DNA from: Globisporangium splendens
Taxonomy: Eukaryota > Oomycota > Peronosporomycetes > Pythiales > Pythiaceae
DNA length: 64,000 nt
NCBI GenBank assembly: GCA_006386115.1
Contig: VFIW01000010.1
Location: forward strand, 496,001 to 560,000
Reading direction: 5' to 3'
Below the pieces are notes generated by a model that worked only from the letters and a program-made list of their open reading frames with translations, was not told the DNA's origin and ran no database searches. This document shows, piece by piece, positions 19,216 through 35,826 of the stretch. The position numbers were made by a program, and so were the translations under genes. The first letter of the stretch is position 1; every line of letters begins with the position of its first letter.

Positions 19216-19890
19216 GATTGAGAGAAAGGAATCGCATTTTAGCGACCAAGGAAGAGACCGGCGCTTCAGCAAGAGAGTGTCTTGTGGACACCACAGTTGC
19301 TCCAAAACTGGCCACCAGCCGAGCGAGTGATTTGACACGGCCAAACAGATCCGACTTTGCGCCCCTAGACTGCGACAGAACCATCTAAATCTCCTGGACA
19401 GATGCTCGAGTTGGCAGAGAGGTGGTGGTTGCGAAAGGCAAGTTGGGAAACGCAGGTTCTTCTTCGCTTACAAAACGCCGATTGGCGGGTGGAGACGGCG
19501 CATGTTGGTCTTTTCGTAGGAGGCACAACCACGAGCAGGCGCAATGCGGCACGACGTTTCGCGTCGGTACGCCTTCAGCAAGTCCGTCAACTGAAACAGC
19601 ATTCCTGCAATTCATGCGCGTTGACATGTGGGACAAATGTTCGATTTACTACCATAGTAAGTTTTAGTCAAATCGATGTTACGTAAACCATATGATTTTA
19701 CCAATGCAATCGCAATTTTATCCAGCATAAATTACTGGATTATTAAGAAAACCCAACACTTGCAAGGTTATTAGCTTTGCCAGTGTTGTTTTTTTCTAAA
19801 GTGACAGAAGATCTTGCTTCAAATAGCATCAACGGAAATTCTCATGGAGTGGTCAATCCCTACAATGGACACTTCATCCTTAACCCTTAC
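19216..19890. other. Unassigned sequence left of the tRNA array
   Basis: AT-rich toward 19680-19880. Two abutting minus-strand frames (19052..19384 and 19385..19636) may be the eroded 5' end of the GH47 relic. Nothing else is recognisable. Confidence 0.35.
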
Positions 19891-20255
19891 AAGGGGTCGT
19901 GGATGCTGGGTTGCGTGGACGCGGTTGTGTGTGTGTGTGTGTGTGTGTGGAGCGGCAGGTAGGGAAGCGCGACGCAACCACGACGCAATGTTTCACAGGG
20001 TGAGGGAGTGGAGTCCAGGCGCGTCTCGGGTTCGAGTCACCGCGCTTGTGCAATGAGCGGGTGGCGAGTGCAGCAAACAAACAAGCGCACGCGCTGACGG
20101 AGAGGAGGAGCGTGCGGAAGGGAGAGTGAATGCAAGCGGCGTGTGGCTGCGGTGACGTTGTTGGCGTGCGGCGTGTTGCGTGTTGCGTGGTTGTTGCGTC
20201 GCGTGTTGTTGTGTTGCGTTGCAGTGTGTTGTGTGAGTTGTTGGAGGAAGCAGTT

Positions 20256-20328
20256 GGTCTTATGGTGTAATGGTTAGCACTCTAGACTTTGAATCTACGC
20301 ATCGCGGGTCAAATCCCGGTAGGGACCT
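20256..20328 (+). pseudogene. Degenerate tRNA-Gln(TTG), array copy 1
   Basis: The 5' half is intact with anticodon loop CTTTGAA. From position 42 on, the variable and T arms are scrambled ('ctacgcatcgcgggtcaaat' in place of 'ctagcgatccgggttcaaat') and an extra G is present in the acceptor 3' strand. The B box is damaged, so it is probably not functional. Confidence 0.7.
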
Positions 20329-20454
20329 CGGTTTTTGTGCGTGTGTGTTGTGTGTGTGTGTGTGTGTTTGTGTGTTGTGGTGGGTTGTGGTTGGTGGTGT
20401 GGATGTGCGCGTCGGGTAGTGCGATGAGGAGCGTGGCAGAAGCGGGAAGGCTCT

Positions 20455-20526
20455 GGTCTTATGGTGTAATGGTTAGCACTCTAGACTCTGAATCTAGCGA
20501 TCCGGGTTCAAATCCCGGTAGGACCT
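20455..20526 (+). tRNA. tRNA-Gln(CTG), array copy 2
   Basis: 72 nt with all stems paired. Acceptor GGTCTTA/TAGGACC with a T discriminator, A box TGGTGTAATGG, anticodon loop CTCTGAA (anticodon CTG, reads CAG), B box GGTTCAAATCC, T run just downstream. Confidence 0.95.
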
Positions 20527-21071
20527 CGTTTTTTGCCACTTGCCACTTGCCACTTGCGATGCCGTCGCGCTCGTGCCTCTCTATTCTCTTCTCTCTTTTC
20601 TACCCGTGTTCGCAAGACTGCGTGTGTGGCTGCCATCTCTTCGTGGTCGGTTGGTCTCGGCAACGCAGCCCTCCTCGCACCAGACGTGGACACCGCAGTG
20701 GAGAGCATACAAGGGGTCGTGGATGCTGGGTTGCGTGGACGCGGTTGTGTGTGTGTGTGTGTGTGTGTGGAGCGGGAGGTAGGGAAGCGCGACGCAACCA
20801 CGACGCAATGTTTCACAGGGTGAGGGAGTGGAGTCCAGGCGCGTCTCGGGTTCGAGTCACCGCGCTTGTGCAATGAGCGGGTGGCGAGTGCAGCAAACAA
20901 ACAAGCGCACGCGCTGACGGAGAGGAGGAGCGTGCGGAAGGGAGAGTGAATGCAAGCGGCGTGTGGCTGCGGTGACGTTGTTGGCGTGCGGCGTGTTGCG
21001 TGTTGCGTGGTTGTTGCGTCGCGTGTTGTTGTGTTGCGTTGCGTTGCAGTGTGTTGTTGGAGGAAGCAGTT

Positions 21072-21143
21072 GGTCTTATGGTGTAATGGTTAGCACTCTA
21101 GACTTTGAATCTAGCGATCCGGGTTCAAATCCCGGTAGGACCT
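21072..21143 (+). tRNA. tRNA-Gln(TTG), array copy 3
   Basis: Same 72-nt body as the CTG copies but with loop CTTTGAA (anticodon TTG, reads CAA). Intact A and B boxes and a T7 stop. Confidence 0.95.
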
Positions 21144-21284
21144 CGTTTTTTTGGGCGTTTCTGTGTGATGTGTGTGTGGTGGTGTGTTGTGTGTTGTGGT
21201 GGGTTCGCTGGTTGGTGCGTTGTGGACTGCGCGCGTAGGGTTAGTGCCGATGAGGAGGGTGGCAGACAGAAGCGGGAAGGCTCT

Positions 21285-21356
21285 GGTCTTATGGTGTAAT
21301 GGTTAGCACTCTAGACTCTGAATCTAGCGATCCGGGTTCAAATCCCGGTAGGACCT
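21285..21356 (+). tRNA. tRNA-Gln(CTG), array copy 4
   Basis: Intact CTG copy. Its upstream flank is CTG-type (gggaaggctct) but its downstream spacer is the short TTG-type, so it appears to be a recombinant unit. Confidence 0.95.
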
Positions 21357-21498
21357 CGTTTTATGTGCGTTTGTGTGTGATGTGTGTGTGTGTTGTGTGT
21401 TGTGTGTGTGTTTGTGTGTTGTGGTGGGTTGTGGTTGGTGGTGTGGATGCGCGCGTCGGGTAGTGCGATGATGAGCGTGGCAGAAGCGGGAAGGCTCT

Positions 21499-21570
21499 GG
21501 TCTTATGGTGTAATGGTTAGCACTCTAGACTCTGAATCTAGCGATCCGGGTTCAAATCCCGGTAGTACCT
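21499..21570 (+). tRNA. tRNA-Gln(CTG) with acceptor mismatch, array copy 5
   Basis: Anticodon CTG. A G-to-T change at 21566 (ggtagTacct) breaks one pair of the acceptor stem, so processing or charging could be weaker. Boxes A and B are intact. Confidence 0.9.
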
Positions 21571-22110
21571 CGTTTTTTGCCACTTGCCACTTGCCACTTG
21601 CGATGCCGTCGCGCTCGTGCCTCTCTATTCTCTTCTCTCTTTTCTACCCGTGTTCGCAAGACTGCGTGTGTGGCTGCCATCTCTTCGTGGTCGGTTGGTC
21701 TCGGCAACGCAGCCCTCCTCGCACCAGACGTGGACACCGCAGTGGAGAGCATAGAAGGGGTCGTGGATGCTGGGTTGCGTGGACGCGGTTGTGTGTGTGG
21801 AGCGGCAGGTAGGGAAGCGCGACGCAACCACGACGCAATGTTTCAAAGGGTGAGGGAGTGGAGTCCAGGCGCGTCTCGGGTTCGAGTCACCGCGCTTGTG
21901 CAATGAGCGGGTGGCGAGTGCAGCAAACAAACAAGCGCACGCGCTGACGGAGAGGAGGAGTGTGCGGAAGGGAGAGTGAATGCAAGCGGCGTGTGGCTGC
22001 GGTGACGTTGTTGGCGTGCGGCGTGTTGCGTGTTGCGTGGTTGTTGCGTCGCGTGTTGTTGTGTTGCGTTGCGTTGCAGTGTGTTGTGTGAGTTGTTGGA
22101 GGAAGCAGTT

Positions 22111-22182
22111 GGTCTTATGGTGTAATGGTTAGCACTCTAGACTTTGAATCTAGCGATCCGGGTTCAAATCCCGGTAGGACCT
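22111..22182 (+). tRNA. tRNA-Gln(TTG), array copy 6
   Basis: Intact TTG copy. The upstream flank is TTG-type but the downstream spacer is the long CTG-type, the reciprocal of copy 4. Confidence 0.95.
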
Positions 22183-22706
22183 CGTTTTTTGCCACTTGCC
22201 ACTTGCCACTTGCGATGCCGTCGCGCTCGTGCCTCTCTATTCTCTTCTCTCTTTTCTACCCGTGTTCGCAAGACTGCGTGTGTGGCTGCCATCTCTTCGT
22301 GGTCGGTTGGTCTCGGCAACGCAGCCCTCCTCGCACCAGACGTGGACACCGCAGTGGAGAGCATACAAGGGGTCGTGGATGCTGGGTTGCGTGGACGCGG
22401 TTGTGTGTGTGGAGCGGCAGGTAGGGAAGCGCGACGCAACCACGACGCAATGTTTCACAGGGTGAGGGAGTGGAGTCCAGGCGCGTCTCGGGTTCGAGTC
22501 ACCGCGCTTGTGCAATGAGCGGGTGGCGAGTGCAGCAAACAAACAAGCGCACGCGCTGACGGAGAGGAGGAGTGTGTGGAAGGGAGAGTGAATGCAAGCG
22601 GCGTGTGGCTGCGGTGACGTTGTTGGCGTGCGGCGTGTTGCGTGTTGCGTGTTGTTGTGTTGCGTTGCGTTGCAGTGTGTTGTGTGAGTTGTTGGAGGAA
22701 GCAGTT

Positions 22707-22778
22707 GGTCTTATGGTGTAATGGTTAGCACTCTAGACTTTGAATCTAGCGATCCGGGTTCAAATCCCGGTAGGACCT
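22707..22778 (+). tRNA. tRNA-Gln(TTG), array copy 7
   Basis: Intact 72-nt TTG copy followed by the short spacer. Confidence 0.95.
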
Positions 22779-22920
22779 CGTTTTTTGTGCGTTTGTGTGT
22801 GATGTGTGTGTGTGTTGTGTGTTGTGTGTGTGTTTGTGTGTTGTGGTGGGTTGTGGTTGGTGGTGTGGATGTGCGCGTCGGGTAGTGCGATGAGGAGCGT
22901 GGCAGAAGCGGGAAGGCTCT

Positions 22921-22992
22921 GGTCTTATGGTGTAATGGTTAGCACTCTAGACTCTGAATCTAGCGATCCGGGTTCAAATCCCGGTAGGACCT
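22921..22992 (+). tRNA. tRNA-Gln(CTG), array copy 8
   Basis: Intact 72-nt CTG copy followed by a long spacer carrying the longer GT tract. Confidence 0.95.
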
Positions 22993-23539
22993 CGTTTTTT
23001 GCCACTTGCCACTTGCCACTTGCGATGCCGTCGCGCTCGTGCCTCTCTATTCTCTTCTCTCTTTTCTATACCCGTGTTCGCAAGACTGCGTGTGTGGCTG
23101 CCATCTCTTCGTGGTCGGTTGGTCTCGGCAACGCAGCCCTCCTCGCACCAGACGTGGACACCGCAGTGGAGAGCATACAAGGGGTCGTGGATGCTGGGTT
23201 GCGTGGACGCGGTTGTGTGTGTGTGTGTGTGTGTGTGGAGCGGGAGGTAGGGAAGCGCGACGCAACCACGACGCAATGTTTCACAGGGTGAGGGAGTGGA
23301 GTCCAGGCGCGTCTCGGGTTCGAGTCACCGCGCTTGTGCAATGAGCGGGTGGCGAGTGCAGCAAACAAACAAGCGCACGCGCTGACGGAGAGGAGGAGCG
23401 TGCGGAAGGGAGAGTGAATGCAAGCGGCGTGTGGCTGCGGTGACGTTGTTGGCGTGCGGCGTGTTGCGTGTTGCGTGGTTGTTGCGTCGCGTGTTGTTGT
23501 GTTGCGTTGCGTTGCAGTGTGTTGTTGGAGGAAGCAGTT

Positions 23540-23611
23540 GGTCTTATGGTGTAATGGTTAGCACTCTAGACTTTGAATCTAGCGATCCGGGTTCAAATCC
23601 CGGTAGGACCT
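23540..23611 (+). tRNA. tRNA-Gln(TTG), array copy 9
   Basis: Intact 72-nt TTG copy followed by a slightly shortened short spacer. Confidence 0.95.
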
Positions 23612-23739
23612 CGTTTTTTGTGCGTTTGTGTGTGATGTGTGTGTGTGTTGTGTGTGTGTGTTGTGTGGGTTGTGGTTGGTGGTGTGGATGCGCGCGTCGG
23701 GTAGTGCGATGAGGAGCGTGGCAGAAGCGGGAAGGCTCT

Positions 23740-23811
23740 GGTCTTATGGTGTAATGGTTAGCACTCTAGACTCTGAATCTAGCGATCCGGGTTCAAATCC
23801 CGGTAGGACCT
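23740..23811 (+). tRNA. tRNA-Gln(CTG), array copy 10
   Basis: Intact 72-nt CTG copy. The following long spacer lacks ~25 bp of the GCGTGTTG-rich end. Confidence 0.95.
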
Positions 23812-24326
23812 CGTTTTTTGCCACTTGCCACTTGCCACTTGCGATGCCGTCGCGCTCGTGCCTCTCTATTCTCTTCTCTCTTTTCTACCCGTGTTCGCAA
23901 GACTGCGTGTGTGGCTGCCATCTCTTCGTGGTCGGTTGGTCTCGGCAACGCAGCCCTCCTCGCACCAGACGTGGACACCGCAGTGGAGAGCATAGAAGGG
24001 GTCGTGGATGCTGGGTTGCGTGGACGCGGTTGTGTGTGTGGAGCGGCAGGTAGGGAAGCGTGACGCAACCACGACGCAATGTTTCACAGGGTGAGGGAGT
24101 GGAGTCCAGGCGCGTCTCGGGTTCGAGTCACCGCGCTTGTGCAATGAGCGGGTGGCGAGTGCAGCAAACAAACAAGCGCACGCGCTGACGGAGAGGAGGA
24201 GTGTGTGGAAGGGAGAGTGAATGCAAGCGGCGTGCGGCGTGTTGCGTGTTGCGTGGTTGTTGCGTCGCGTGTTGTTGTGTTGCGTTGCGTTGCAGTGTGT
24301 TGTGTGAGTTGTTGGAGGAAGCAGTT

Positions 24327-24398
24327 GGTCTTATGGTGTAATGGTTAGCACTCTAGACTTTGAATCTAGCGGTCCGGGTTCAAATCCCGGTAGGACCT
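24327..24398 (+). tRNA. tRNA-Gln(TTG) variant, array copy 11
   Basis: TTG copy with one A-to-G change in the variable region (ctagcggtccggg), outside the stems and the B box. Probably functional. Confidence 0.93.
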
Positions 24399-24521
24399 CG
24401 TTTTTTGTGCGTTTGTGTGTGATGTGTGTGTGTGTTGTGTGTTGTGGTGGGTTGTGGTTGGTGGTGTGGATGCGCGCGTCGGGTAGTGCGATGAGGAGCG
24501 TGGCAGAAGCGGGAAGGCTCT

Positions 24522-24593
24522 GGTCTTATGGTGTAATGGTTAGCACTCTAGACTCTGAATCTAGCGATCCGGGTTCAAATCCCGGTAGGACCT
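24522..24593 (+). tRNA. tRNA-Gln(CTG), array copy 12
   Basis: Intact 72-nt CTG copy followed by a long spacer. Confidence 0.95.
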
Positions 24594-25133
24594 CGTTTTT
24601 TGCCACTTGCCACTTGCCACTTGCGATGCCGTCGCGCTCGTGCCTCTCTATTCTCTTCTCTCTTTTCTACCCGTGTTCGCAAGACTGCGTGTGTGGCTGC
24701 CATCTCTTCGTGGTCGGTTGGTCTCGGCAACGCAGCCCTCCTCGCACCAGACGTGGACACCGCAGTGGAGAGCATAGAAGGGGTCGTGGATGCTGGGTTG
24801 CGTGGACGCGGTTGTGTGTGTGGAGCGGCAGGTAGGGAAGCGCGACGCAACCACGACGCAATGTTTCACAGGGTGAGGGAGTGGAGTCCAGGCGCGTCTC
24901 GGGTTCGAGTCACCGCGCTTGTGCAATGAGCGGGTGGCGAGTGCAGCAAACAAACAAGCGCACGCGCTGACGGAGAGGAGGAGCGTGCGGAAGGGAGAGT
25001 GAATGCAAGCGGCGTGTGGCTGCGGTGACGTTGTTGGCGTGCGGCGTGTTGCGTGTTGCGTGGTTGTTGCGTCGCGTGTTGTTGTGTTGCGTTGCGTTGC
25101 AGTGTGTTGTGTGAGTTGTTGGAGGAAGCAGTT

Positions 25134-25205
25134 GGTCTTATGGTGTAATGGTTAGCACTCTAGACTTTGAATCTAGCGATCCGGGTTCAAATCCCGGTAG
25201 GACCT
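25134..25205 (+). tRNA. tRNA-Gln(TTG), array copy 13
   Basis: Intact 72-nt TTG copy. Its short spacer is interrupted 30 bp downstream by a 381-bp insertion. Confidence 0.95.
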
Positions 25206-25235
25206 CGTTTTTTGTGCGTTTGTGTGTGATGTGTG

Positions 25236-25616
25236 ATAAAGGTCAAGAGTGCAGAGGAAGGATGATTCGAACTTGAGATGTCAAATTGGAAAGTAAGATT
25301 GTTTAAGGTTGGTCTCCTACCCGTGCGACACTGAGCGTGTCCACTCGGTGTTGGACACAAACGGAGGTTCCTGTGAGCCACAAGATCCTGAGATGTACGG
25401 AGAGGATCTAACCAATCAAAATGCACTATCCTACGCTGTCACCCTAAAGATTCCCCAACATTCAATGACTATGCTACGAGACATGAACAATGCTTACGCC
25501 CTATGATAAATTCCAGTGTTTACGCTTGGCGTAAACAAGTGTCCCATACGGGAACGTTCCACGAAAGAGACGTGCGGTTGGCATCGTTCGTACCACAAAC
25601 ACGGTACATCTCAATA
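25236..25616. mobile_element. 381-bp insertion in a tRNA spacer with 7-bp target duplication
   Basis: Non-repeat sequence interrupts the short spacer after copy 13. ATGTGTG occurs on both sides (25229-25235 and 25617-25623), and removing the insert plus one copy restores the spacer seen elsewhere in the array. It contains no long open frame. It has a 9-bp inverted repeat (tgtttacgc/gcgtaaaca) near 25516-25536. On the minus strand a perfect B-box-like GTTCGAATC lies near 25264-25272, with an A-box-like segment about 50 bp upstream of it. A short non-autonomous element is the simplest reading; the class is unclear. Confidence 0.6.
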
Positions 25617-25735
25617 ATGTGTGTGTGTGTTGTGTGTTGTGTGTGTGTTTGTGTGTTGTGGTGGGTTGTGGTTGGTGGTGTGGATGCGCGCGTCGGGTAG
25701 TGCGATGAGGAGCGTGGCAAAAGCGGGAAGGCTCT

Positions 25736-25807
25736 GGTCTTATGGTGTAATGGTTAGCACTCTAGACTCTGAATCTAGCGATCCGGGTTCAAATCCCGGT
25801 AGGACCT
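25736..25807 (+). tRNA. tRNA-Gln(CTG), array copy 14
   Basis: Intact 72-nt CTG copy. Its long spacer has two instead of three TTGCCAC heptamers and is cut at 26187. Confidence 0.95.
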
Positions 25808-26265
25808 CGTTTTTTGCCACTTGCCACTTGCGATGCCGTCGCGCTCGTGCCTCTCTATTCTCTTCTCTCTTTTATACCCGTGTTCGCAAGACTGCGTGTG
25901 TGGCTGCCATCTCTTCGTGGTCGGTTGGTCTCGGCAACGCAGCCCTCCTCGCACCAGATGTGGACACCGCAGTGGAGAGCATACAAGGGGTCGTGGATGC
26001 TGGGTTGCGTGGACGCGGTTGTGTGTGTGGAGCGGCAGGTAGGGAAGCGCGACGCAACCACGACGCAATGTTTCACAGGGTGAGGGAGTGGAGTCCAGGC
26101 GCGTCTCGGGTTCGAGTCACCGCGCTTGTGCAATGAGCGGGTGGCGAGTGCAGCAAACAAACAAGCGCACGCGCTGACGGAGAGGAGACTGCGACGTTCA
26201 CATATTCGCTTGAAGTGGCTTGTTCTTGTCGCTTCACTTCATCTTCTGCTTCTTTTGTGTCTTGA

Positions 26266-26964
26266 TCAGGGACGCTTGCAGATCTTCGTTCTTCTTCGTC
26301 GGTCTTCTTTAACCCTGCCAGTGCGGAACTCTTCATCGCTCTTGGCTACAGGAGTAGTCTTTTTCTGGCGCCTGACTACTCCACCTCTAGTGGTCTTCAC
26401 GGGCTTGTCATTTGAGTGTGAGGGGCCATCGCACGCCTGACTCTCATTAGACACATCTTCAACAGATGTATATGCCCAAATCACCTCTCTTGCTGCCTGG
26501 CAGCTGAGGTCTTCGTCGACTTGCTTGTCGACGCTGATCTTCTTCTTCTTCCAGTCAATGCTCGGTTGGTGCCTTCTCAACCAGGGCATTCCCAGAATCA
26601 GATCAAACTTGTCATCGAGGTCGAGTGCTATAAACTCGTCTTCACCTCGGAAATCATCACATTCGATTGCCATACGCAACACGCGCTTAGGCATCGTCAC
26701 TTTCGATCCATTCGTCAAGCGAACGATCATTTCCTTGTTCGAGATAGGCAGGTCCAAACCTTGCCTTCTCACCACTTGTGTGCGGACAAAATTGTTCGAC
26801 GCACCAGTGTCTACAAGAGCCCGTAGAGGTTCTGAGTAACCATCTACCTTAACCTTGTGGACTATCAAGGCTGGCTCTTGCTCGACACGCTCACATCTGT
26901 TCGCGGAAACTTCATGTGCATTGCGCACACCGGGGCAAGAGTTCTGCGCTTCCACGACATTCAC
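26266..26964 (-). CDS. Retrotransposon aspartic protease (gag-pol fragment)
   Basis: 232 codons in the frame after gag. 'ALVDTGASNNFV' carries the retropepsin DTGA catalytic motif. It is followed by 'IALDLDDKFDLILGMPWL', with the flap/second-strand 'ILGMPWL' motif common to Ty3/gypsy-type pol, then a basic linker. The pol frame stops at 26266, and element sequence ends at 26188, so reverse transcriptase and everything beyond it are lost. Expression would have needed readthrough or a frame change after gag. It is a fragment and cannot support transposition alone. Confidence 0.8.
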   Translation of the reverse strand: MNVVEAQNSCPGVRNAHEVSANRCERVEQEPALIVHKVKVDGYSEPLRALVDTGASNNFVRTQVVRRQGLDLPISNKEMIVRLTNGSKVTMPKRVLRMAIECDDFRGEDEFIALDLDDKFDLILGMPWLRRHQPSIDWKKKKISVDKQVDEDLSCQAAREVIWAYTSVEDVSNESQACDGPSHSNDKPVKTTRGGVVRRQKKTTPVAKSDEEFRTGRVKEDRRRRTKICKRP

Positions 26965-26999
26965 AGAACTCTTTGTTCGCCCAGTAGGGAGCCCCGCTC

Positions 27000-28043
27000 C
27001 TACTGGTCGTTCCCGTTTTTTGGCTGTTGGGAACGCTCGAATCGTCGGCCTCTACCTGATCGATTCGATCGCGAACCGTGTGTCGCTTGCTGGCTTGGCA
27101 AGGACACCTTGCAATTTCTCGCGATGTGGCCGGGCTTGCCGCAACGGAAACACTTCCCGTCATTGCGTGGCTGTCTGTTAGCGGTCGCATCGGCATACGA
27201 GATGTCCATCGGTTCTGGACCGTCGTGTGTGACTGCGTGTTGTCGAACAGGGCGAGGGCCGAAACCGTTGAACTTGGCTTGCTTGATGCTGAATTCTTCT
27301 TGCATCGCTCGCTCGATAGCTTCATCCAGCGTCTTGGGGTACTCGCGGAACAGCTGGTTCCGAATTGGACCATCATTGAGCCCTGCCATGAATGTCACAA
27401 CTTGCGTTGAGGCATCAATCGGCTCATTCACGATACTTGACACGAGGTATCGTGCTCGTTGAGCGTACGAGTGTAGGTCGTATTTACCCTGACGAAGCTT
27501 TAGGAACTCAGCGCGAGCCCGAAATTCGCTCTGCGGAGGCTCAAAAGCCTTCTTCAGCTCTCGCTTGAAGTCGTCCAGGTCGTAGAAGCAATGTGGCTCT
27601 GCCAATCGCTTCCCATACGCCCAACTCTTCGCTCGACCCGCAAGGTTTGACATCGCAAACAACACTTGCTGCATTGGGTCCCGTAGTTGTCTTGCAGTGA
27701 TTGCTGCATCCAACTCAACGAACCATCTCGCTAGAGGTTCGTTCTCTCCGCCACGGTACGGAGATACATCGAGCTTCAGAGGTGCCACTCTCATCGTCGT
27801 GACAGGAGTTGCGGGCTGTCGATGAGAGTTCATGATCTCGTGATGCATGAAGCTCGTAGCCGCGTTCCTCTGCTCATCCGGTGACGCTGATCTCAGCAAG
27901 CTGATCACAGCCGCCTCACCGATGACCGCTCGCATACGCTCGAGGGCTGCCCACTCGTGGCTCGACAAATGAGGAAAATGCTCATTCGTCAGCTCCACGG
28001 TCTCTCCAGGCATCGAACCCATCGGCGTCTCAATCCCTTCCAT
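27000..28043 (-). CDS. Ty3/gypsy-type Gag with CCHC zinc knuckle
   Basis: 347 residues from the ATG at 28043. The central part is a retrotransposon-gag capsid region: 'PLARWFVELDAAITARQL', 'KSWAYGKRL', 'FKRELKKAFEPP', 'LRQGKYDLHSYAQRARYL', 'FMAGLNDGPIRNQLFREYP'. The C-terminus has one zinc knuckle CFRCGKPGHIARNC (CX2CX4HX4C) and a basic Gly/Arg/Ser tail for nucleic-acid binding. The frame is intact, suggesting recent activity despite the truncated pol. About 105 bp upstream, on the minus strand, 'TGGTAGCACTTCG' could be the primer-binding site next to a 5' LTR. Confidence 0.88.
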   Translation of the reverse strand: MEGIETPMGSMPGETVELTNEHFPHLSSHEWAALERMRAVIGEAAVISLLRSASPDEQRNAATSFMHHEIMNSHRQPATPVTTMRVAPLKLDVSPYRGGENEPLARWFVELDAAITARQLRDPMQQVLFAMSNLAGRAKSWAYGKRLAEPHCFYDLDDFKRELKKAFEPPQSEFRARAEFLKLRQGKYDLHSYAQRARYLVSSIVNEPIDASTQVVTFMAGLNDGPIRNQLFREYPKTLDEAIERAMQEEFSIKQAKFNGFGPRPVRQHAVTHDGPEPMDISYADATANRQPRNDGKCFRCGKPGHIARNCKVSLPSQQATHGSRSNRSGRGRRFERSQQPKNGNDQ

Positions 28044-28149
28044 TGTTTCTCACAATCGGACAGGGGTCTTGGAATGTCCGCGCACGCTACACAAGCGGCC
28101 TATGCAGACTCTTGACTTGGTCGTTGGAAGGACTACGAAGTGCTACCAG

Positions 28150-28740
28150 GTGTAAGAGGCTATCCGAGACAGCCTCAAACACGGCACGCACGCTTGCGCT
28201 TGAAGAGGAAGACTTGAGAGGAACTTGGCAAATATGCAACTGAATTGAAATGAGCTTATGGTTCCTGACACTACATGTAAAACACCACTAGGGCTCCTAG
28301 AGGTTTTATAACTATAACCTAAACATGCACAATAAAACCTATGAATATGATATATAAAACCTTGGGTACACTGAGGTTGAACCCAGGGGATCTTCGAGAA
28401 ACTTGAACTTGAAGTCCCGTGGAAAATTCCCTGCAAAGTGATTGGCTCGCGCCACTCACTTTAGGTGGCAGACACACGTCGGTCTCATCACCAGTGCAGT
28501 TTCCCAAGTAGGAACCATCACTCACATGTCTAGAGTATTGTTGTGCGTAATCACGCCGAATCTCAATGATTGCGAGCGACCAACACTCAACTCAGACACA
28601 GATTGCTCTGACGTCAGACTATGACGTCACCTGTGCATGTGGGGATCACTTTTATGTGTTTCACCCAATATCTTCGCACCCACAATGCACTTCCACAAGG
28701 TGGTGTGTGACACACACAAAGAGCCACCTTGCATGTAATG
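28150..28740 (-). promoter_or_regulatory. Probable 5' LTR/leader of the gag element
   Basis: Lies directly upstream of gag on its strand, ends next to a possible primer-binding site (tggtagc on the minus strand, near 28150) and carries no gene. It contains two perfect TGACGTCA palindromes at 28609-28616 and 28622-28629, five bases apart, typical of bZIP/CREB-type binding and a plausible LTR promoter. The outer boundary was not found. A 10-bp inverted repeat (catgtaatgg/ccattacatg, 28733-28762) marks the junction with the next segment. Confidence 0.4.
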
Positions 28741-28746
28741 GCAGCC

Positions 28747-30233
28747 TTAGCCCATTACATGATTCAGATCGCAGAGCAGACCCATGTAGTCGCTCTGCAA
28801 CTTGTCGAAATGGTTCTGAATAGTCAACTGACTCTTCAGCAAGCCACGATTCTCCTCGCGGAGATCGTCAACCAAACGTGCGAGTTCCTGAAGCCGGGAC
28901 TCGTGACGCAAGATCACATCGTGCATCTCCGCGACGGACTGTCCAATAGCATTCTGTTGGACAGCAGGTGTTTCCCCCACCGCCGCCACTGGTGGTTGAT
29001 AGTTCTGGTAACAAGCGCTGGATTGTCAAGCGCTTGCTTGACCGCAGGGATCGCCAACTCGGGCGTATCGAGCGTACCGAGTACTTGGTACGCTACCTTG
29101 GTTCCCCTTCCAGCTTCGACTCATAGGAGCCAAAGCTGCAGCTTGAGCAGGACGTGCTTGACTTGGTGCGAGCGTACGAGAACCGCTCGCTCGCGGATCG
29201 CTCTCATCAGAGCGACCGTGTCGCTCGTTCGAATTAGCATTCGAGCGCAAGGTGACAAAGGCATCGACCATGTCTTTGACGGTGTTGGGTACGAGGTTAT
29301 CCCCATACCCATTCAGATCATCGTATGAAATCCGTTCTGCTCCGTTTGGGCAGATCGGACAGTGAATATCCGTCGGAACTCCGCAAGGAATTCCGGTAGC
29401 AAGGCTGGCGAAGTGGATTGCCCACCAATCGAATGCTTTTCTTATCGTTTGCGCGCAGCGCGTAAACGATCAATGAACGCCTTCGGACATTTATTAGAGT
29501 TGTCAATAAATGCGTTCCACAACTGCAAGAGTGCAGCCGTGTTATCGCTGTTCTTCCGAGCTCTCTTGCGAGATGCGTAGTGACGCATCTGGAAAAACAG
29601 ATCGATGTAAAACCGATTCCGATCATCAGTAATCGGATCGAGGTTCAAGCTCTGAACGTATGTGTCGTCCTTCAGAGCTTGCGTTGCGAACAACGCGTGG
29701 TCATACTCAGGACGAGTAGCACCACGATTGTGTGGGTCAAGGGCCCACGATGGGGTCCAATGATCAACGACATAGGGAGTGTGTTGGCGTTCCAACACAC
29801 TCGAAGACAAGCATGCAGCCTCTGTCTTTTGTTTCTTCTTCAACGACTCACGCGAGTCGTCGCAACCGTTGTCGTTCTTCTTCTCGTCGGAGGAGGACCC
29901 TCCGTACGCTGAATCACCGTCGAAGAGAGAGGAGATGTCGCTCTCTTCGTAGTCGACGCAGTCGACACCGTGTCTGTCTTGTGAGCTGGAAGGAAAGCGC
30001 TCGATCTTCGGGAGCTCCTTCTCCTCCAGCCCATCGGATACTGCGCAAGCAGCATCCGCACCAGAATCACACATTCGGACATCATCCACAGCGGATGATG
30101 TCGAGTTTGACGCAGCATACTTTGCAGCATGAAGCGTTTTATACGCTTGCACCGACAAGCGCACGCTTGCGACGCTTTCGCTGCTGCTTTTGCAGTCGCT
30201 ATTGCTAGCGCTGTTGCCTTTATTCGTACTCAT
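28747..30233 (-). pseudogene. Unrecognised ORF next to the LTR, one frameshift and one stop
   Basis: Reads from an ATG at 30233 through a Ser/Asp-rich N-terminus with 'DYEESDISSLFDGDSAYGGS', then a conserved-looking core ('YVVDHWTPSWALDPHNRG', 'TDDRNRFYIDLFFQMRHYAS') to 'FIDRLRAARKR' and a stop at 29442. A frame change near 29450 continues into 'IRKAFDWWAIHFASLATGIP' with a CPICPNG motif and 'DNLVPNTVKDMVDAFVTL', to a TGA at 29026. The same frame then goes on with a coiled coil ('MHDVILRHESRLQELARLVD') to 28747. Together about 490 residues. I do not recognise the family. It could be the first ORF of a minus-strand element or an extra antisense ORF of a plus-strand element. Codon bias supports real past coding. 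Confidence 0.5.
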
Positions 30234-30374
30234 GTTGCTGTCAACGTGAGCGTGCAGTGCGAAATGATCGGTACCAACAAGTGCTGACCCAATACGTTTG
30301 ATCAAGCTAAACGACCAAATGCAACCGCTCAGCCAGGTCTAAAAATAGATCAAACGATTTTGACGGGGGGATGG

Positions 30375-30783
30375 TGTAACAGGGTAGCCTGTTACACAGT
30401 CCGCAACTATTCGAATAATCACAGTGCTACACTTCACTGTGAGCATTGACTTAAGTACGAAGTCGTACTTAAGAAGAGACGAACTATTGCCTCATACAGG
30501 CAATACTTTGTGAGCAGCCTATTGGACAATATTATTGAGGATCTCTTTTATTGTCCAATCAGAGTGTAGGAATTGTAGGAAAATCTGTGAGCCAATGGTT
30601 TTTGGTCCAATCACATCAATTAGGCTAGGGACTAATTCGATGTAATCTCACTCTCAACTTTGCCACCAATTGCATACGTCTTTATTCAATTGGGAGCGAC
30701 TCAAGACAGGCTTGAGTCGTTCATAGCACGTTTCCTCAACGCACACCTACGGTGTACGCAGTTGTAACAGCCACCCTGTTACA
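30375..30783. repeat. 409-bp LTR with TGTAACAGGG/CCCTGTTACA ends
   Basis: Perfect 10-bp terminal inverted repeats with TG...CA ends. On the plus strand it is preceded directly by a purine run (gacggggggatgg, 30362-30374), which fits a polypurine tract and hence a 3' LTR of a plus-strand element. Read the other way it would be the 5' LTR of a minus-strand element, but no tRNA-complementary primer site follows it. It ends exactly against nucleotide 12 of a tRNA-Gln gene. Confidence 0.75.
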
Positions 30784-30844
30784 GTAATGGTTAGCATTCT
30801 AGACTCTGAATCTAGCGATCCGGGTTCAAATCCCGGTAGGACCT
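30784..30844 (+). pseudogene. tRNA-Gln(CTG) cut by LTR insertion, array copy 15
   Basis: 61 nt identical to the CTG copies from nucleotide 12 to the discriminator, apart from one C-to-T change in the anticodon-arm side (gcattcta). The first 11 nt, including the 5' acceptor strand and the start of the A box, are replaced by the LTR end. The normal short spacer follows to about 30930. It cannot form an acceptor stem. Confidence 0.9.
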
Positions 30845-31029
30845 CGTTTTTTGTGCGTTTGTGTGTGATGTGTGTGATGTGTGTGTGTGTGTTGTGGTGG
30901 GTTGTGGTTGGTGGTGTGGATACACGATTCATGTTTTCAAGTATACTGACGTTGTTGCAGTGGGGGAGAAGATGAGATGGCTGTCAAAGTATGTGGCGGT
31001 GTTGGAGTTTGTCTCTGCGTGCTAATTAT

Positions 31030-31500: not shown

Positions 31501-33051
31501 TCATGACAAGACCTCATGATACTTTCCTAAAGCATTTGCGATGTTCAGAGCTCCATTTCGCATAGCTTGAGCCACGATCTCGGCCGAAAACCCTTCGTTT
31601 CGATGTGTGCGCAAGAAGTTGACGACACCGTCGTGCCCCTTCATCATTGCCTGTGTCAACGCTGCCTTCGTGCACCCTTCCGATCGATTCTCGTGTAGAA
31701 AGCGAACGACTTCGAGATGTCCCTCGCGCGCTGCACTGTCCATAGCGTACGTCGTGCAACTTGCCTTGCCTGTTTGATGCAGGAAACGCACCACATCCAC
31801 GAAACCACGACCAGCAGCTCGGTCCATCCCATATGAAGTGCATCCTTCCGTGCGGTTCTTGTGGAGAAAGTGGAGCACGTCAAGGCATCCTTCACCGGCT
31901 GCACAATCCATCGCTGCTGTGGTCCAACCACTTGTACGATGCTCGTGCAGAAATTGCACGACCGGAAGAGTCAAGTTCCGACTACTCCAACTGATGGGCT
32001 TGTTGGAGAAGCCCTCGGTGCGGTTCTCGCTCAGAAACTTCAACACCGTGAGCTTTCCACTATCTGCCGCGCCATCCATCGCTTTCGTCGTGCAGCCCTC
32101 CGCACGGTGGAGGTGTAGAAATTTCACGACTTGGAGATGGCCATGCCGTGCGGCGTCATCCATGGCGTTTGTCGTGCATCCTTCCGTTCGCATCTCGTGG
32201 AGAAACTGGACAATCTGCAAACGACCGTTTTTCGCGGCTCCATCCATGGCAACCGTCGTGCAGCCTTCATGACGATGCTTGTGTAAAAACTCGAGAGTAC
32301 TGAGATGACCATTCGACGCTGCCAAGTCCATTGCAAGCGTACTACACCCTTCGGTTCGGTGTTCATGAAGGTATTGTATGACCTCGACATGCCCTTCTCT
32401 CGCCGCGTAGTCCATTGCATTTCCAGAGAATGAGTACTTGTGGTCATGCAACCATCGCACGAGGTCCAAATGGCCGAATCCTGCGGCTTGGTCGATATCT
32501 TGTGCCGTGAGCTGCAAACTCTCTGGTGGGCAATTCTCGTACAGCCAATCCAGGAGATCGATGTTAGGAGCTCCATATTGACGAATAGCATGCTCCATGA
32601 GCTCGTCTTCCCACACCAAGCATTGATCTCTCTGCATTCTCTGATGTAGCCACTTGAGCAAATCGAGTCTCTGGTACACGACAGCGCAGCGTTGGACATG
32701 CGTAAAGTCCAATTCTCGGTACACAGTCGCATACAACGGCACGCGGTGCAGCTCATACAGCACTTCAAACACCTTTCGGTTGTCTTCAGCAATCGCGACG
32801 TGGAACAGCCACCCCATCTTCATCAGATAGTGGCTTCGTTGGTGCACACTGGTTGATCTTTCACAAGCACCACCTTTCTTGCTCGCATTCGCCTTGGCTT
32901 GGTTAGCGAAGTCAACGACGATCCGGGGCCATCCGTCCATGAAGTCGGTGATGCAGCGCCACAGCATGGGTTCCGTGAGCACGAGAAGCGCCGACGGCGG
33001 CGTCGCAGCGGCACTCGGGGCTGCTGGTGATGGGCGAGAGAGCGCAGCCAT
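31501..33051 (-). CDS. Ankyrin-repeat protein, 'LHExRxEGCT' family (copy A)
   Basis: Intronless, 516 residues from the ATG at 33051; upstream in-frame sequence looks like leader. The N-terminal ~200 residues form the family's non-repeat domain: 'ALLVLTEPMLWRCITDF', 'FHVAIAEDNRKVFEVLYEL', 'RLDLLKWLHQRM', 'NIDLLDWLYENCPPESL'. About ten 33-residue ankyrin units follow, of the form 'AMDxAAxxGHLxVVxFLHExRxEGCTT'. They end near the C-terminus with weaker repeats. Such proteins are greatly expanded in oomycetes and their function is unknown; the repeats predict protein binding. There is no signal peptide or kinase. It is divergent with paralogue B across ~700 bp, which points to an inverted duplication. 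A break in repeat 6 (SNKPISWSSRNLTLPVVQFL) shows sequence drift. Confidence 0.9.
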   Translation of the reverse strand: MAALSRPSPAAPSAAATPPSALLVLTEPMLWRCITDFMDGWPRIVVDFANQAKANASKKGGACERSTSVHQRSHYLMKMGWLFHVAIAEDNRKVFEVLYELHRVPLYATVYRELDFTHVQRCAVVYQRLDLLKWLHQRMQRDQCLVWEDELMEHAIRQYGAPNIDLLDWLYENCPPESLQLTAQDIDQAAGFGHLDLVRWLHDHKYSFSGNAMDYAAREGHVEVIQYLHEHRTEGCSTLAMDLAASNGHLSTLEFLHKHRHEGCTTVAMDGAAKNGRLQIVQFLHEMRTEGCTTNAMDDAARHGHLQVVKFLHLHRAEGCTTKAMDGAADSGKLTVLKFLSENRTEGFSNKPISWSSRNLTLPVVQFLHEHRTSGWTTAAMDCAAGEGCLDVLHFLHKNRTEGCTSYGMDRAAGRGFVDVVRFLHQTGKASCTTYAMDSAAREGHLEVVRFLHENRSEGCTKAALTQAMMKGHDGVVNFLRTHRNEGFSAEIVAQAMRNGALNIANALGKYHEVLS

Positions 33052-33756
33052 GGAGCGAGAGAGGCGCTTGGGTGCTTCGTGGCGGATTCCGAAGTGAGGG
33101 CTGCTGCTTGGAGAACGAGCGCGTGAGCGGAGGTCTGCTTGGGGCCATGTTTGGACTTCTGCTTGGAGTCGAGAGACCACGAGAATTTCGAAACGCCACA
33201 CACAAAAAAGTTGAAGTAGGTACCGTAACGATTCATTTAAAGACGCGAGATGTAAATGTATATAGATTTGCATGAAAGTGAAAATTTGGTGCGTACTTAA
33301 TCGAGGGAAGTAGGGAGATGGACAAAACGTTTAACAATCACAGTCCATCCTTGCAGAACAACAATCAAGTTGTTGCGGATATTCATCTATAGAGGTTTAG
33401 GACTTTCTGAATATACACTGCGCAAGGGGATTCAAATAGAGAGGCAACAGACAGTGCGTGCAGCAGGAACAAACCCTCTGACTGATGGTTTTTGCAATAT
33501 GATAAAACAGGTGTTGAAAACATCATTTTGGTCAAACAAATCAAATTTACAGCACCAAATTCCCACGTTTGCACGAAACAAAAGAAGCTCCAAGTGTACC
33601 CACTGGCACAGCAGGGGCCAGTATAAAGAAATATACTGAGCATGCGTTCATGCATGTCTCGGAACCTGCACGCGAATGCCACACATTGCATTGCACTCAT
33701 CCACAGTTGGATTTGTGTCGCGGCAGCTAGCACTCTTCCACCTTCACCACCTCCAC
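33052..33756. promoter_or_regulatory. Divergent promoter region of the ankyrin pair
   Basis: 705 bp between two head-to-head paralogues. AT-richer than the genes, with no supported coding frame apart from short leader-like extensions at each end. Presumably holds both promoters; no motif stands out. Confidence 0.5.
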
Positions 33757-35826
33757 ATGACTGCCGTGACGGACCCATTGCAGCCACCCCCAACGCCCGT
33801 GGTCCTCGACGCGTTTGCTGCCGCGCAATCCGAGTCACCAGCGCTCCTCGTTCTCGCGGACCCGGAGCTCCTGCGCTGCATCACGAGCTTCGTGATCGGA
33901 TGGCCGCTGCTCATCCACGAGTTCCAGCGCGACGTCGTGCCCACGTACGACTTTGATCCGCCCAAGAAGGACGTGCGCGACTTCGTGAAACGCGTGTACT
34001 TTCCCAAGCGCGTCGGCATGTTCCCGCATATCGCGATCGCGGAAGACAACGGCAAGGTGCTCGAAATGCTCTTCCACATGAACAAGCTCTCGTACTACCA
34101 GACGTGTCCGCAGATGTACTTTGGCGAAGTCATGCGCTGCACCGCGTTCTACGGCCGCCTGGAGCTGCTCAAGTGGGTGCACCGCATGACGTCGCGGTAC
34201 CCGGAGTGGACGTGGGAAGAGGATCTGATGAAGACTGCGATTCGATGCGACGAACCTGATCTGGAGCTGCTCGACTGGCTGTACAGTCACTGCCCCAGCG
34301 AGAGCATCGTGCTCACGTCGGACGAAGCTAGCCGGCAGGCGGAACTCGGCAACTTAACGGTCCTCCGATGGCTCCACGACCACGGGTACCTGTTCTCGTC
34401 CTCGACGATGGACGAAGCCGCCAAGCACGGTCACTTGGACATTGTCCGGTTCTTGCACGAGCAGCGCACGGAAGGGTGCACCCCTGCCGCAATGAACCAC
34501 GCGGCTCGCAACGGTCATTTCGATGTCCTCTTGTTTCTCCATGAGAACCGCGAAGAAGGATGCACGGTGAATGCGATGAACTGGAGCGCGAAGAGGAACC
34601 ACTTTGCGATTCTCAAATTCCTGCACGAGAACCGCAGCGAAGGCTGCAGCACGGACGCCATGGACGATGCCGCATGGGAAGGACACCTCGAGGTGGTCCA
34701 GTTTCTCCACGAGAATCGCTCCGAGGGATGCACAACCGACGCCATGGACTACGCGGCATGGGGCGGCCGCATGGACGTCCTGAGGTTCCTTCACGAGAAC
34801 AGATCTGAGGGGTGCACGTCGAGAGCGATGGACAACGCTGCGCAAAAGAATCATCTTGAATCCGTGCAATTTCTACACGAGAATCGGTCTGAGGGTTGTA
34901 CGCTGGCTGGGATCGAGTCGTGCGCGAAACTTGGCCACATGGACATGGTAAAGTACCTGCTTGAACACAATTGCTGTCGTGATGGCATTGAAAGCACGGC
35001 TGGTATCATGGAAGCCGCCGCGACTGCAGGTCACATGGAGATCGTCAGGTACTTGCACGAGCATCATGGCGCGGACTGCTCTTCGCCAGCTGCCGTAGTT
35101 GGCGCCGCTGGAAATGACCACCTCGATGTGATCCAGTTCTTCCACGAAAACTACCCCGATGCGTTTACTGCCGAGGTCATGGAGAATGCTGCGTGGACGG
35201 GCCAATTCGAGATTGTCAAGTTTCTTCACGAGAACCGGAGTGAGGGGTGTACATCGAACGCTATGCACTACGCTGCTGCGAATGGCCACTTTGACATTGT
35301 CAAGTATTTGCATGAGCATCGCACGGAAGGTTGCATGCACAACACGATGGACCGAGCAGCAGAAGGCGGGTATCTCGACATTGTCAAATTTCTCCACGAG
35401 CATTACCCAGAGTCCTGCACGAGCGACGCCATAGCGGCTGCAATCGTCAACAGCCACCTTGACGTTGCTCGCTTTCTCCACGAGAATCGAGCTGAGGGGT
35501 TTACGGACATGTACGTCAACCAGCTCAGCCCCGATGCGATAAAGTTCTTATGCGTGCACCGCAGCAGCGACATCTTGCCGGAGATCCTAGCGAGCGCAGT
35601 CCAAGCCGATCTCCCGTACACCGTCAAAGTGCTCTGCGAGTTCTCGAACAAAGGTTGTCTGCTCGAAGCCCGGCAGCTCGCGCTCGAGAAAGGCTTTGGA
35701 GCCGTGGCACAGGTGCTCACTGGTTTTATCGCGCACGATATCGAGTCGTGCTCGCTCGCTGAGCACTCGGAGGACGGCCCGCGGCGCTGTCAGACCAACC
35801 ACCTGAAAGCCTTTTTTCAACAATGA
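33757..35826 (+). CDS. Ankyrin-repeat protein, 'LHENRSEGCT' family (copy B)
   Basis: Intronless, 689 residues from the ATG at 33757 (an in-frame ATG at 33676 would add 27 residues). Same architecture as copy A: N-terminal domain with 'ALLVLADPELLRCITSFVIG', 'FPHIAIAEDNGKVLEMLFHM' and 'DLELLDWLYSHCPSESIVL', then some 13 ankyrin units of the 'AMDxAAxxGHLDIVKFLHENRSEGCT' type, and a less regular C-terminal ~120 residues. Repeats 5-8 are nearly identical at the protein and DNA level, which suggests recent internal duplication. One unit is replaced by 'YLLEHNCCRDGIESTAG'. Function unknown. Confidence 0.92.
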   Translation: MTAVTDPLQPPPTPVVLDAFAAAQSESPALLVLADPELLRCITSFVIGWPLLIHEFQRDVVPTYDFDPPKKDVRDFVKRVYFPKRVGMFPHIAIAEDNGKVLEMLFHMNKLSYYQTCPQMYFGEVMRCTAFYGRLELLKWVHRMTSRYPEWTWEEDLMKTAIRCDEPDLELLDWLYSHCPSESIVLTSDEASRQAELGNLTVLRWLHDHGYLFSSSTMDEAAKHGHLDIVRFLHEQRTEGCTPAAMNHAARNGHFDVLLFLHENREEGCTVNAMNWSAKRNHFAILKFLHENRSEGCSTDAMDDAAWEGHLEVVQFLHENRSEGCTTDAMDYAAWGGRMDVLRFLHENRSEGCTSRAMDNAAQKNHLESVQFLHENRSEGCTLAGIESCAKLGHMDMVKYLLEHNCCRDGIESTAGIMEAAATAGHMEIVRYLHEHHGADCSSPAAVVGAAGNDHLDVIQFFHENYPDAFTAEVMENAAWTGQFEIVKFLHENRSEGCTSNAMHYAAANGHFDIVKYLHEHRTEGCMHNTMDRAAEGGYLDIVKFLHEHYPESCTSDAIAAAIVNSHLDVARFLHENRAEGFTDMYVNQLSPDAIKFLCVHRSSDILPEILASAVQADLPYTVKVLCEFSNKGCLLEARQLALEKGFGAVAQVLTGFIAHDIESCSLAEHSEDGPRRCQTNHLKAFFQQ

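What the first reader, a model, noticed from the sequence alone, without database searches (positions are those of the whole stretch)
19891..30930. Tandem array alternating two glutamine tRNA isoacceptors
Fifteen tRNA-Gln copies (seven TTG including one degenerate, eight CTG including one cut) alternate with two spacer types in one locus. The two genes differ visibly at a single anticodon base (C/T34) apart from private mutations, so the CTG and TTG genes arose by duplication and are co-homogenised. Paired supply of CAA and CAG decoders in one array is unusual; tRNA arrays are usually of one isoacceptor or mixed families.
Basis: seen in the sequence. Interest (0 to 1): 0.75.

Follow-up and report, generated by a model that had tools for sequence, protein, structure and literature searches.

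The report
Paired glutamine tRNA tandem array
A real stretch of repeated glutamine tRNA genes in a water-mould genome alternates the two kinds that read the two glutamine codons; the same arrangement has been published for the potato blight organism, so this is a further example and not a new phenomenon.

Summary
The locus has 13 intact tRNA-Gln genes (6 TTG, 7 CTG), a degenerate TTG copy at the left edge and a CTG copy at the right edge cut by a retroelement LTR. The types differ only at position 34, apart from one private change in each of two copies. The unit is dimeric: TTG, short spacer A, CTG, long spacer B. Alternation breaks twice, and 3 of 15 copies carry the other type's 3' spacer, as unequal exchange inside the tRNA gene would leave. 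Full B spacers are about as uniform as the tRNAs (0.56% against 0.40-0.46%), so the array is homogenised. No other nuclear Gln tRNA was detected in the genome. The claim that the pairing is unusual fails: same-isotype tRNA repeats occur on other contigs, and the P. infestans genome paper names tRNA-GlnCTG with tRNA-GlnTTG as its example of a two-anticodon array (PMC9584435). E. coli has both Gln isoacceptors in one cluster. New member of a known kind; low interest.

The parts
19888..30921 (+). Whole tRNA-Gln array, from partial spacer B at the left to the spacer A remnant at the right
20256..20328 (+). Degenerate tRNA-Gln(TTG); five single-base indels in the body against an intact copy (decay or residual read errors)
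20455..20527 (+). tRNA-Gln(CTG), spacer B behind
21072..21144 (+). tRNA-Gln(TTG), spacer A behind
21285..21357 (+). tRNA-Gln(CTG) followed by spacer A: recombinant; T-run of 4
21499..21571 (+). tRNA-Gln(CTG), spacer B behind, private G-to-T at position 68 (62.8 bits)
22111..22183 (+). tRNA-Gln(TTG) followed by spacer B: recombinant that lacks spacer A and a CTG gene
22707..22779 (+). tRNA-Gln(TTG), spacer A behind
22921..22993 (+). tRNA-Gln(CTG), spacer B behind
23540..23612 (+). tRNA-Gln(TTG), spacer A behind
23740..23812 (+). tRNA-Gln(CTG), spacer B behind
24327..24399 (+). tRNA-Gln(TTG), spacer A behind, private A-to-G at position 46
24522..24594 (+). tRNA-Gln(CTG), spacer B behind
25134..25206 (+). 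tRNA-Gln(TTG), spacer A with an insertion behind
25236..25617 (.). 382-bp dispersed repeat inserted in spacer A
   Evidence: 31 other matches in the genome, one of them partial
25736..25808 (+). tRNA-Gln(CTG), truncated spacer B behind (array sequence to 26187)
26188..30783 (.). Mosaic of LTR-retroelement pieces (gag and protease ORFs on the - strand, LTR at 30375-30783) interrupting the array
30784..30845 (+). Cut tRNA-Gln(CTG), nucleotides 12 onwards only, followed by spacer A

Best explanation
An ordinary oomycete tRNA tandem array with a dimeric unit: tRNA-Gln(TTG), spacer A, tRNA-Gln(CTG), spacer B. Shown: intact genes with A-box and B-box sequences and a T-run of 4 to 7 behind each, nearly uniform units, three copies with swapped 3' spacers, no other nuclear Gln tRNA detected, and two mobile-element interruptions. 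Inferred: each gene is transcribed by RNA polymerase III from its own internal promoter; TTG tRNAs read CAA (and CAG by wobble) and CTG tRNAs read CAG; unequal exchange between units, sometimes within the roughly 80-bp tRNA-plus-terminator homology shared by the two gene types, changes copy number and spreads variants; edge copies escape homogenisation and decay. One Gln gene duplicated and changed at position 34, and selection keeps both types.
For: 13 of 13 intact copies score 62.8-69.8 bits and keep the A box, B box and a T-run of at least 4. Mean pairwise substitution 0.0056 per site in six full B spacers against 0.0046 in six TTG and 0.0040 in seven CTG bodies. Three of 15 copies with swapped 3' flank; 14 of 14 with matching 5' flank. 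The tRNA body finds 15 places in the genome at E up to 10, all in this array; a Gln anticodon plus T-arm pattern finds 14 of its 18 matches here, the other 4 being at control level (5). Other isotypes are repeated on their own contigs. Published precedent in P. infestans.
Against: No expression data. Array order and copy number rest on one assembly. PMC9584435 reports much higher diversity in dimeric and trimeric P. infestans arrays than in monomeric ones, whereas the genes here are nearly uniform. A spacers are more variable (0.057 to 0.075 per site), so homogenisation is uneven. The pattern misses tRNAs with another T-arm (it found none on the presumed mitochondrial contig), and the RF00005 search scored 63 of 1890 candidates, so a divergent Gln gene elsewhere is not excluded.
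Confidence: 0.9

Rival explanations
1. Assembly artefact: units collapsed, expanded or mis-ordered, so that copy number, the two breaks in alternation and the degenerate copy are not real.
For: PMC9584435 warns that tRNA arrays assemble poorly. The first copy differs by five single-base indels and no substitution in its body, a pattern that also fits uncorrected long-read errors.
Against: The array sits inside an 895-kb contig; units differ in spacer length, two mobile-element interruptions give unique landmarks, and 3' flank swaps would need coordinated errors.
Confidence: 0.1
2. The pairing is an adaptation that ties CAA and CAG decoder supply in a fixed ratio.
For: Gene ratio 6:7; CAA 115 and CAG 141 in nine hand-picked window ORFs.
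Against: A dimeric unit gives about 1:1 without selection; the codon sample is small and only 3 of the 9 ORFs have similarity evidence. PMC9584435 found only a modest correlation (R = 0.41) of gene number with codon frequency in P. infestans. The array itself contains C-C and T-T breaks.
Confidence: 0.08
3. The copies are tRNA-derived repeats (SINE-like) or pseudogenes and not genes.
For: Many copies, with mobile elements nearby.
Against: Full-length cloverleaves in head-to-tail order with shared spacers; no match of the tRNA body outside the array at E up to 10.
Confidence: 0.01

Closest known systems
Phytophthora infestans tRNA tandem arrays, including tRNA-Gln(CTG)/tRNA-Gln(TTG) (PMC9584435; section 9 read, other passages seen)
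   Same: Tandem array of a dimeric unit with the two Gln anticodons; tRNA families concentrated on single chromosomes; growth by unequal crossing-over proposed there
   Different: Here 15 copies in a 53-Mb Globisporangium genome against thousands of tRNA genes in P. infestans; here the genes are nearly uniform, while the paper reports higher diversity in dimeric and trimeric arrays; the paper's Gln array sequence was not seen, so homology of units is untested
Entamoeba tRNA gene arrays (PMC2652664; passages and part of Table 1 seen)
   Same: Tandem arrays of units with one or more tRNA genes, simple-sequence repeats between genes, concerted evolution invoked
   Different: In the four species of the table rows seen, Gln(CTG) and Gln(TTG) lie in different units; distant lineage
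Escherichia coli metT-leuW-glnU-glnW-metU-glnV-glnX cluster (operon status recalled)
   Same: Two tRNA-Gln(UUG) and two tRNA-Gln(CUG) genes close together; copies within each type identical
   Different: Bacterial cluster with Met and Leu genes among them; the two types differ at 7 positions and not at one; not a repeated array

Membership tests
Oomycete dimeric tRNA tandem array | Head-to-tail repeats of a unit with two tRNA genes and their spacers | tested here: met
   10 of 12 neighbouring intact pairs alternate
Oomycete dimeric tRNA tandem array | Same amino acid with two anticodons, as in the published Gln example | tested here: met
   6 TTG and 7 CTG intact genes; PMC9584435
Oomycete dimeric tRNA tandem array | Oomycete genome | tested here: met
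   100% protein match to a Globisporangium splendens entry and four equal contig lengths
Oomycete dimeric tRNA tandem array | Higher gene diversity than in monomeric arrays, as reported for P. infestans | tested here: not met
   TTG bodies 0.0046 and CTG bodies 0.0040 substitutions per site; a reported tendency in one species, not a defining trait
Oomycete dimeric tRNA tandem array | Unit homologous to, or syntenic with, the P. infestans Gln array | not testable with these tools
   No other oomycete genome was available to search; one scan of viral contigs with a tRNA pattern gave 0 matches
Functional tRNA-Gln gene | Cloverleaf, Gln anticodon, internal promoter boxes, T-run terminator | tested here: met
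   13 of 13 intact copies
Functional tRNA-Gln gene | Expression and charging with glutamine | not testable with these tools

The most novel reading that the evidence does not exclude
This one array is the only nuclear source of both Gln decoders, and exchange inside the tRNA gene, seen as a CTG-gaining product (21285) and a CTG-losing product (22111), shifts the CAA/CAG decoder ratio heritably, so that array rearrangement acts as a quick tuner of Gln-codon translation.
Probability: 0.08. Interest if true: 0.5.

Novelty: new member of a known kind. Interest (0 to 1): 0.2.

Why it matters
It shows in Globisporangium a pattern published for Phytophthora, and because the two genes differ at one base and have different flanks, recombination junctions inside a tRNA gene can be read directly. 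It would matter more if such exchange were shown to change decoder supply between isolates.

Tried and rejected
Targeting of tRNA genes by the retroelement (as Ty3 does, recalled): five other full-length-like copies of the LTR were found (the seventh match is a 29-base piece inside one of them), and ARAGORN finds no tRNA within 1.5 kb of any of the five, so the insertion into tRNA-Gln looks incidental. In the window the LTR end is followed by GTAAT, nucleotides 12-16 of the intact tRNA; the left end of the insertion is lost, so a target-site duplication cannot be confirmed here. One other copy (L061) has GTAAG on both sides.

A tRNA-Gln pattern in viral contigs gave 0 matches. A B-box pattern gave 202 forward and 217 reverse matches in the genome against 64 and 66 for its control; only the first places were listed, so it was not used to count genes. 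The RF00005 search scored 63 of 1890 candidates, so no total tRNA count is given. Of twelve places fetched, three chosen as B-box matches (L080, L081, L082) hold no tRNA.

A first spacer comparison put the insertion-bearing A spacer among the B spacers and gave 0.136 per site; one search corrects it to 0.0056. The 5'-flank label that one search prints for the cut copy is meaningless, because that flank is LTR.

Searches of the open-licence PMC library for earlier reports. No search found this Globisporangium array described; papers outside that library were not searched.

Full report
What is there. ARAGORN reports 13 tRNA-Gln genes on the + strand between 20455 and 25808: six with anticodon TTG, seven with CTG. 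Rfam's tRNA model finds the same 13 and adds two weak hits, at 20256 (35.2 bits) and 30775 (31.2 bits; cut-off 29). The first is a degenerate TTG copy. The second is a CTG copy of which only nucleotides 12 onwards remain, directly behind the end of an LTR. The 13 intact genes differ at position 34 alone, except for one private change in 24327 and one in 21499. All 13 keep the A-box and B-box sequences and a T-run of 4 to 7.

Unit structure. Six of 7 TTG copies are followed by spacer A (123-142 bp in the six uninterrupted spacers, TG-rich), and 6 of 8 CTG copies by spacer B (515-547 bp in six full spacers). The unit is therefore dimeric, about 0.8 kb long. Alternation holds for 10 of 12 neighbouring intact pairs; by label order alone 3338 of 100000 shuffles do as well. 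All 14 copies that have a 5' flank carry the flank typical of their anticodon, but three of 15 copies carry the other type's 3' spacer: CTG 21285 and the cut CTG at 30784 are followed by A, and TTG 22111 by B. The two gene types share about 80 bp with one mismatch. The simplest reading is unequal exchange with breakpoints between position 34 and the T-run; one kind of product gains an A-CTG piece (C-C order), the other loses it (T-T order). This is inferred from the junctions.

Homogenisation. Mean pairwise substitution is 0.0056 per site among six full B spacers, 0.0046 among six TTG bodies and 0.0040 among seven CTG bodies. Spacers without obvious constraint are about as uniform as the tRNAs, which points to homogenisation and not to purifying selection alone. 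A spacers are more variable: 0.057 per site in five, 0.075 with the one next to the degenerate copy. The two defective copies are the first and the last, as expected if edges escape homogenisation; but the left one differs by five single-base indels, which could also be read errors.

Genome context. The window is G000:C12:496001-560000, in an assembly of 53310241 bases and 195 contigs. A protein named as Globisporangium splendens matches G000 at 100%. Of seven distinct contig lengths given for G. splendens rows among the 120 listed, four (399652, 158708, 220970, 54572) equal lengths of G000 contigs; the other three were not among the contigs fetched. The tRNA body finds 15 places in the genome at E up to 10, all in this array. 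A Gln anticodon plus T-arm pattern has 18 matches, 14 of them here; the other four are at the level of the control (5). This is the only nuclear source of Gln tRNA detected, with the limits that a gene with another T-arm would be missed and that the family search scored 63 of 1890 candidates. Of those 63, 19 lie on C48, presumed mitochondrial (inferred from packed tRNA genes and inverted repeats, not tested). Of the other 44, 40 lie on six contigs with several hits each (C12 6, C34 4, C70 9, C111 13, C117 2, C179 6) and 4 on C122 and C153. ARAGORN on fetched pieces names Thr(TGT) on C34 and C117, Lys(TTT) on C70 and C111 and Ile(TAT) on C179, plus Ile(AAT) repeats on C35; the pieces on C122 and C153 hold Trp and Gly. 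Not every hit was fetched. Repeats of one isotype are thus common in this genome.

Interruptions. A 382-bp repeat with 31 other matches, one of them partial, sits in an A spacer at 25236-25617. From 26188 to 30783 lie pieces of LTR retroelements: gag and protease ORFs on the - strand and an LTR at 30375-30783 with five other full-length-like copies, none with a tRNA within 1.5 kb. Comparison with those copies shows a mosaic. It was described only.

Codon use. Nine ORFs picked by hand from 47 of at least 180 aa contain 115 CAA and 141 CAG, near the 6:7 gene ratio. Only three of the nine have similarity evidence, and a dimeric unit gives about 1:1 anyway.

Comparison with what is known. PMC9584435 (section 9 read in full) reports for P. 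infestans that about 64% of tRNA genes are in tandem arrays of one gene and 36% in arrays of dimeric or trimeric units, and gives tRNA-GlnCTG with tRNA-GlnTTG as the example of one amino acid with two anticodons. It reports that about two-thirds of families reside on one chromosome, and its discussion proposes unequal crossing-over (passage). A figure legend lists a G. splendens assembly among those counted; whether that is this assembly was not tested. It also reports much higher diversity in dimeric and trimeric arrays than in monomeric ones, which this array does not show. E. coli K-12 has two UUG and two CUG Gln genes in one cluster, with 7 differences between types. Entamoeba has tandem tRNA arrays with short tandem repeats between genes; in the four species of the table rows seen, the two Gln isoacceptors lie in different units.

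Verdict. A real, probably functional, homogenised array; a new member of a known kind. The recombinants inside the tRNA gene and the apparent sole-source status are the details worth keeping. Interest 0.2.

Noticed in passing
window 25236-25617: A 382-bp dispersed repeat, 87-98% identical in 30 other near-full-length places and one partial one, several of them near both ends of contig C12 and at about 4.4-kb spacing on C150.
   Followed up: partly
window 26188-30783: LTR-retroelement mosaic with gag and protease ORFs on the - strand and an LTR that ends inside a tRNA-Gln gene; the remaining polymerase part and the left end are missing from this stretch by inspection of the ORF list and Pfam hits.
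   Followed up: partly
window 31501-33273 (-) and 33676-35826 (+): Two divergently oriented ankyrin-repeat ORFs right of the array; the first has Pfam ankyrin hits, the second was judged by eye only.
   Followed up: no
G000 contigs C128 and C194: A large family of potassium-channel beta-subunit-like (aldo/keto reductase) genes: 72 matches in the genome with one query, most on C128 and C194, against a single match on the window's contig.
   Followed up: no
window 20290-20345: The first tRNA copy and the start of its spacer carry a cluster of single-base indels that could be residual sequencing errors.
   Followed up: partly
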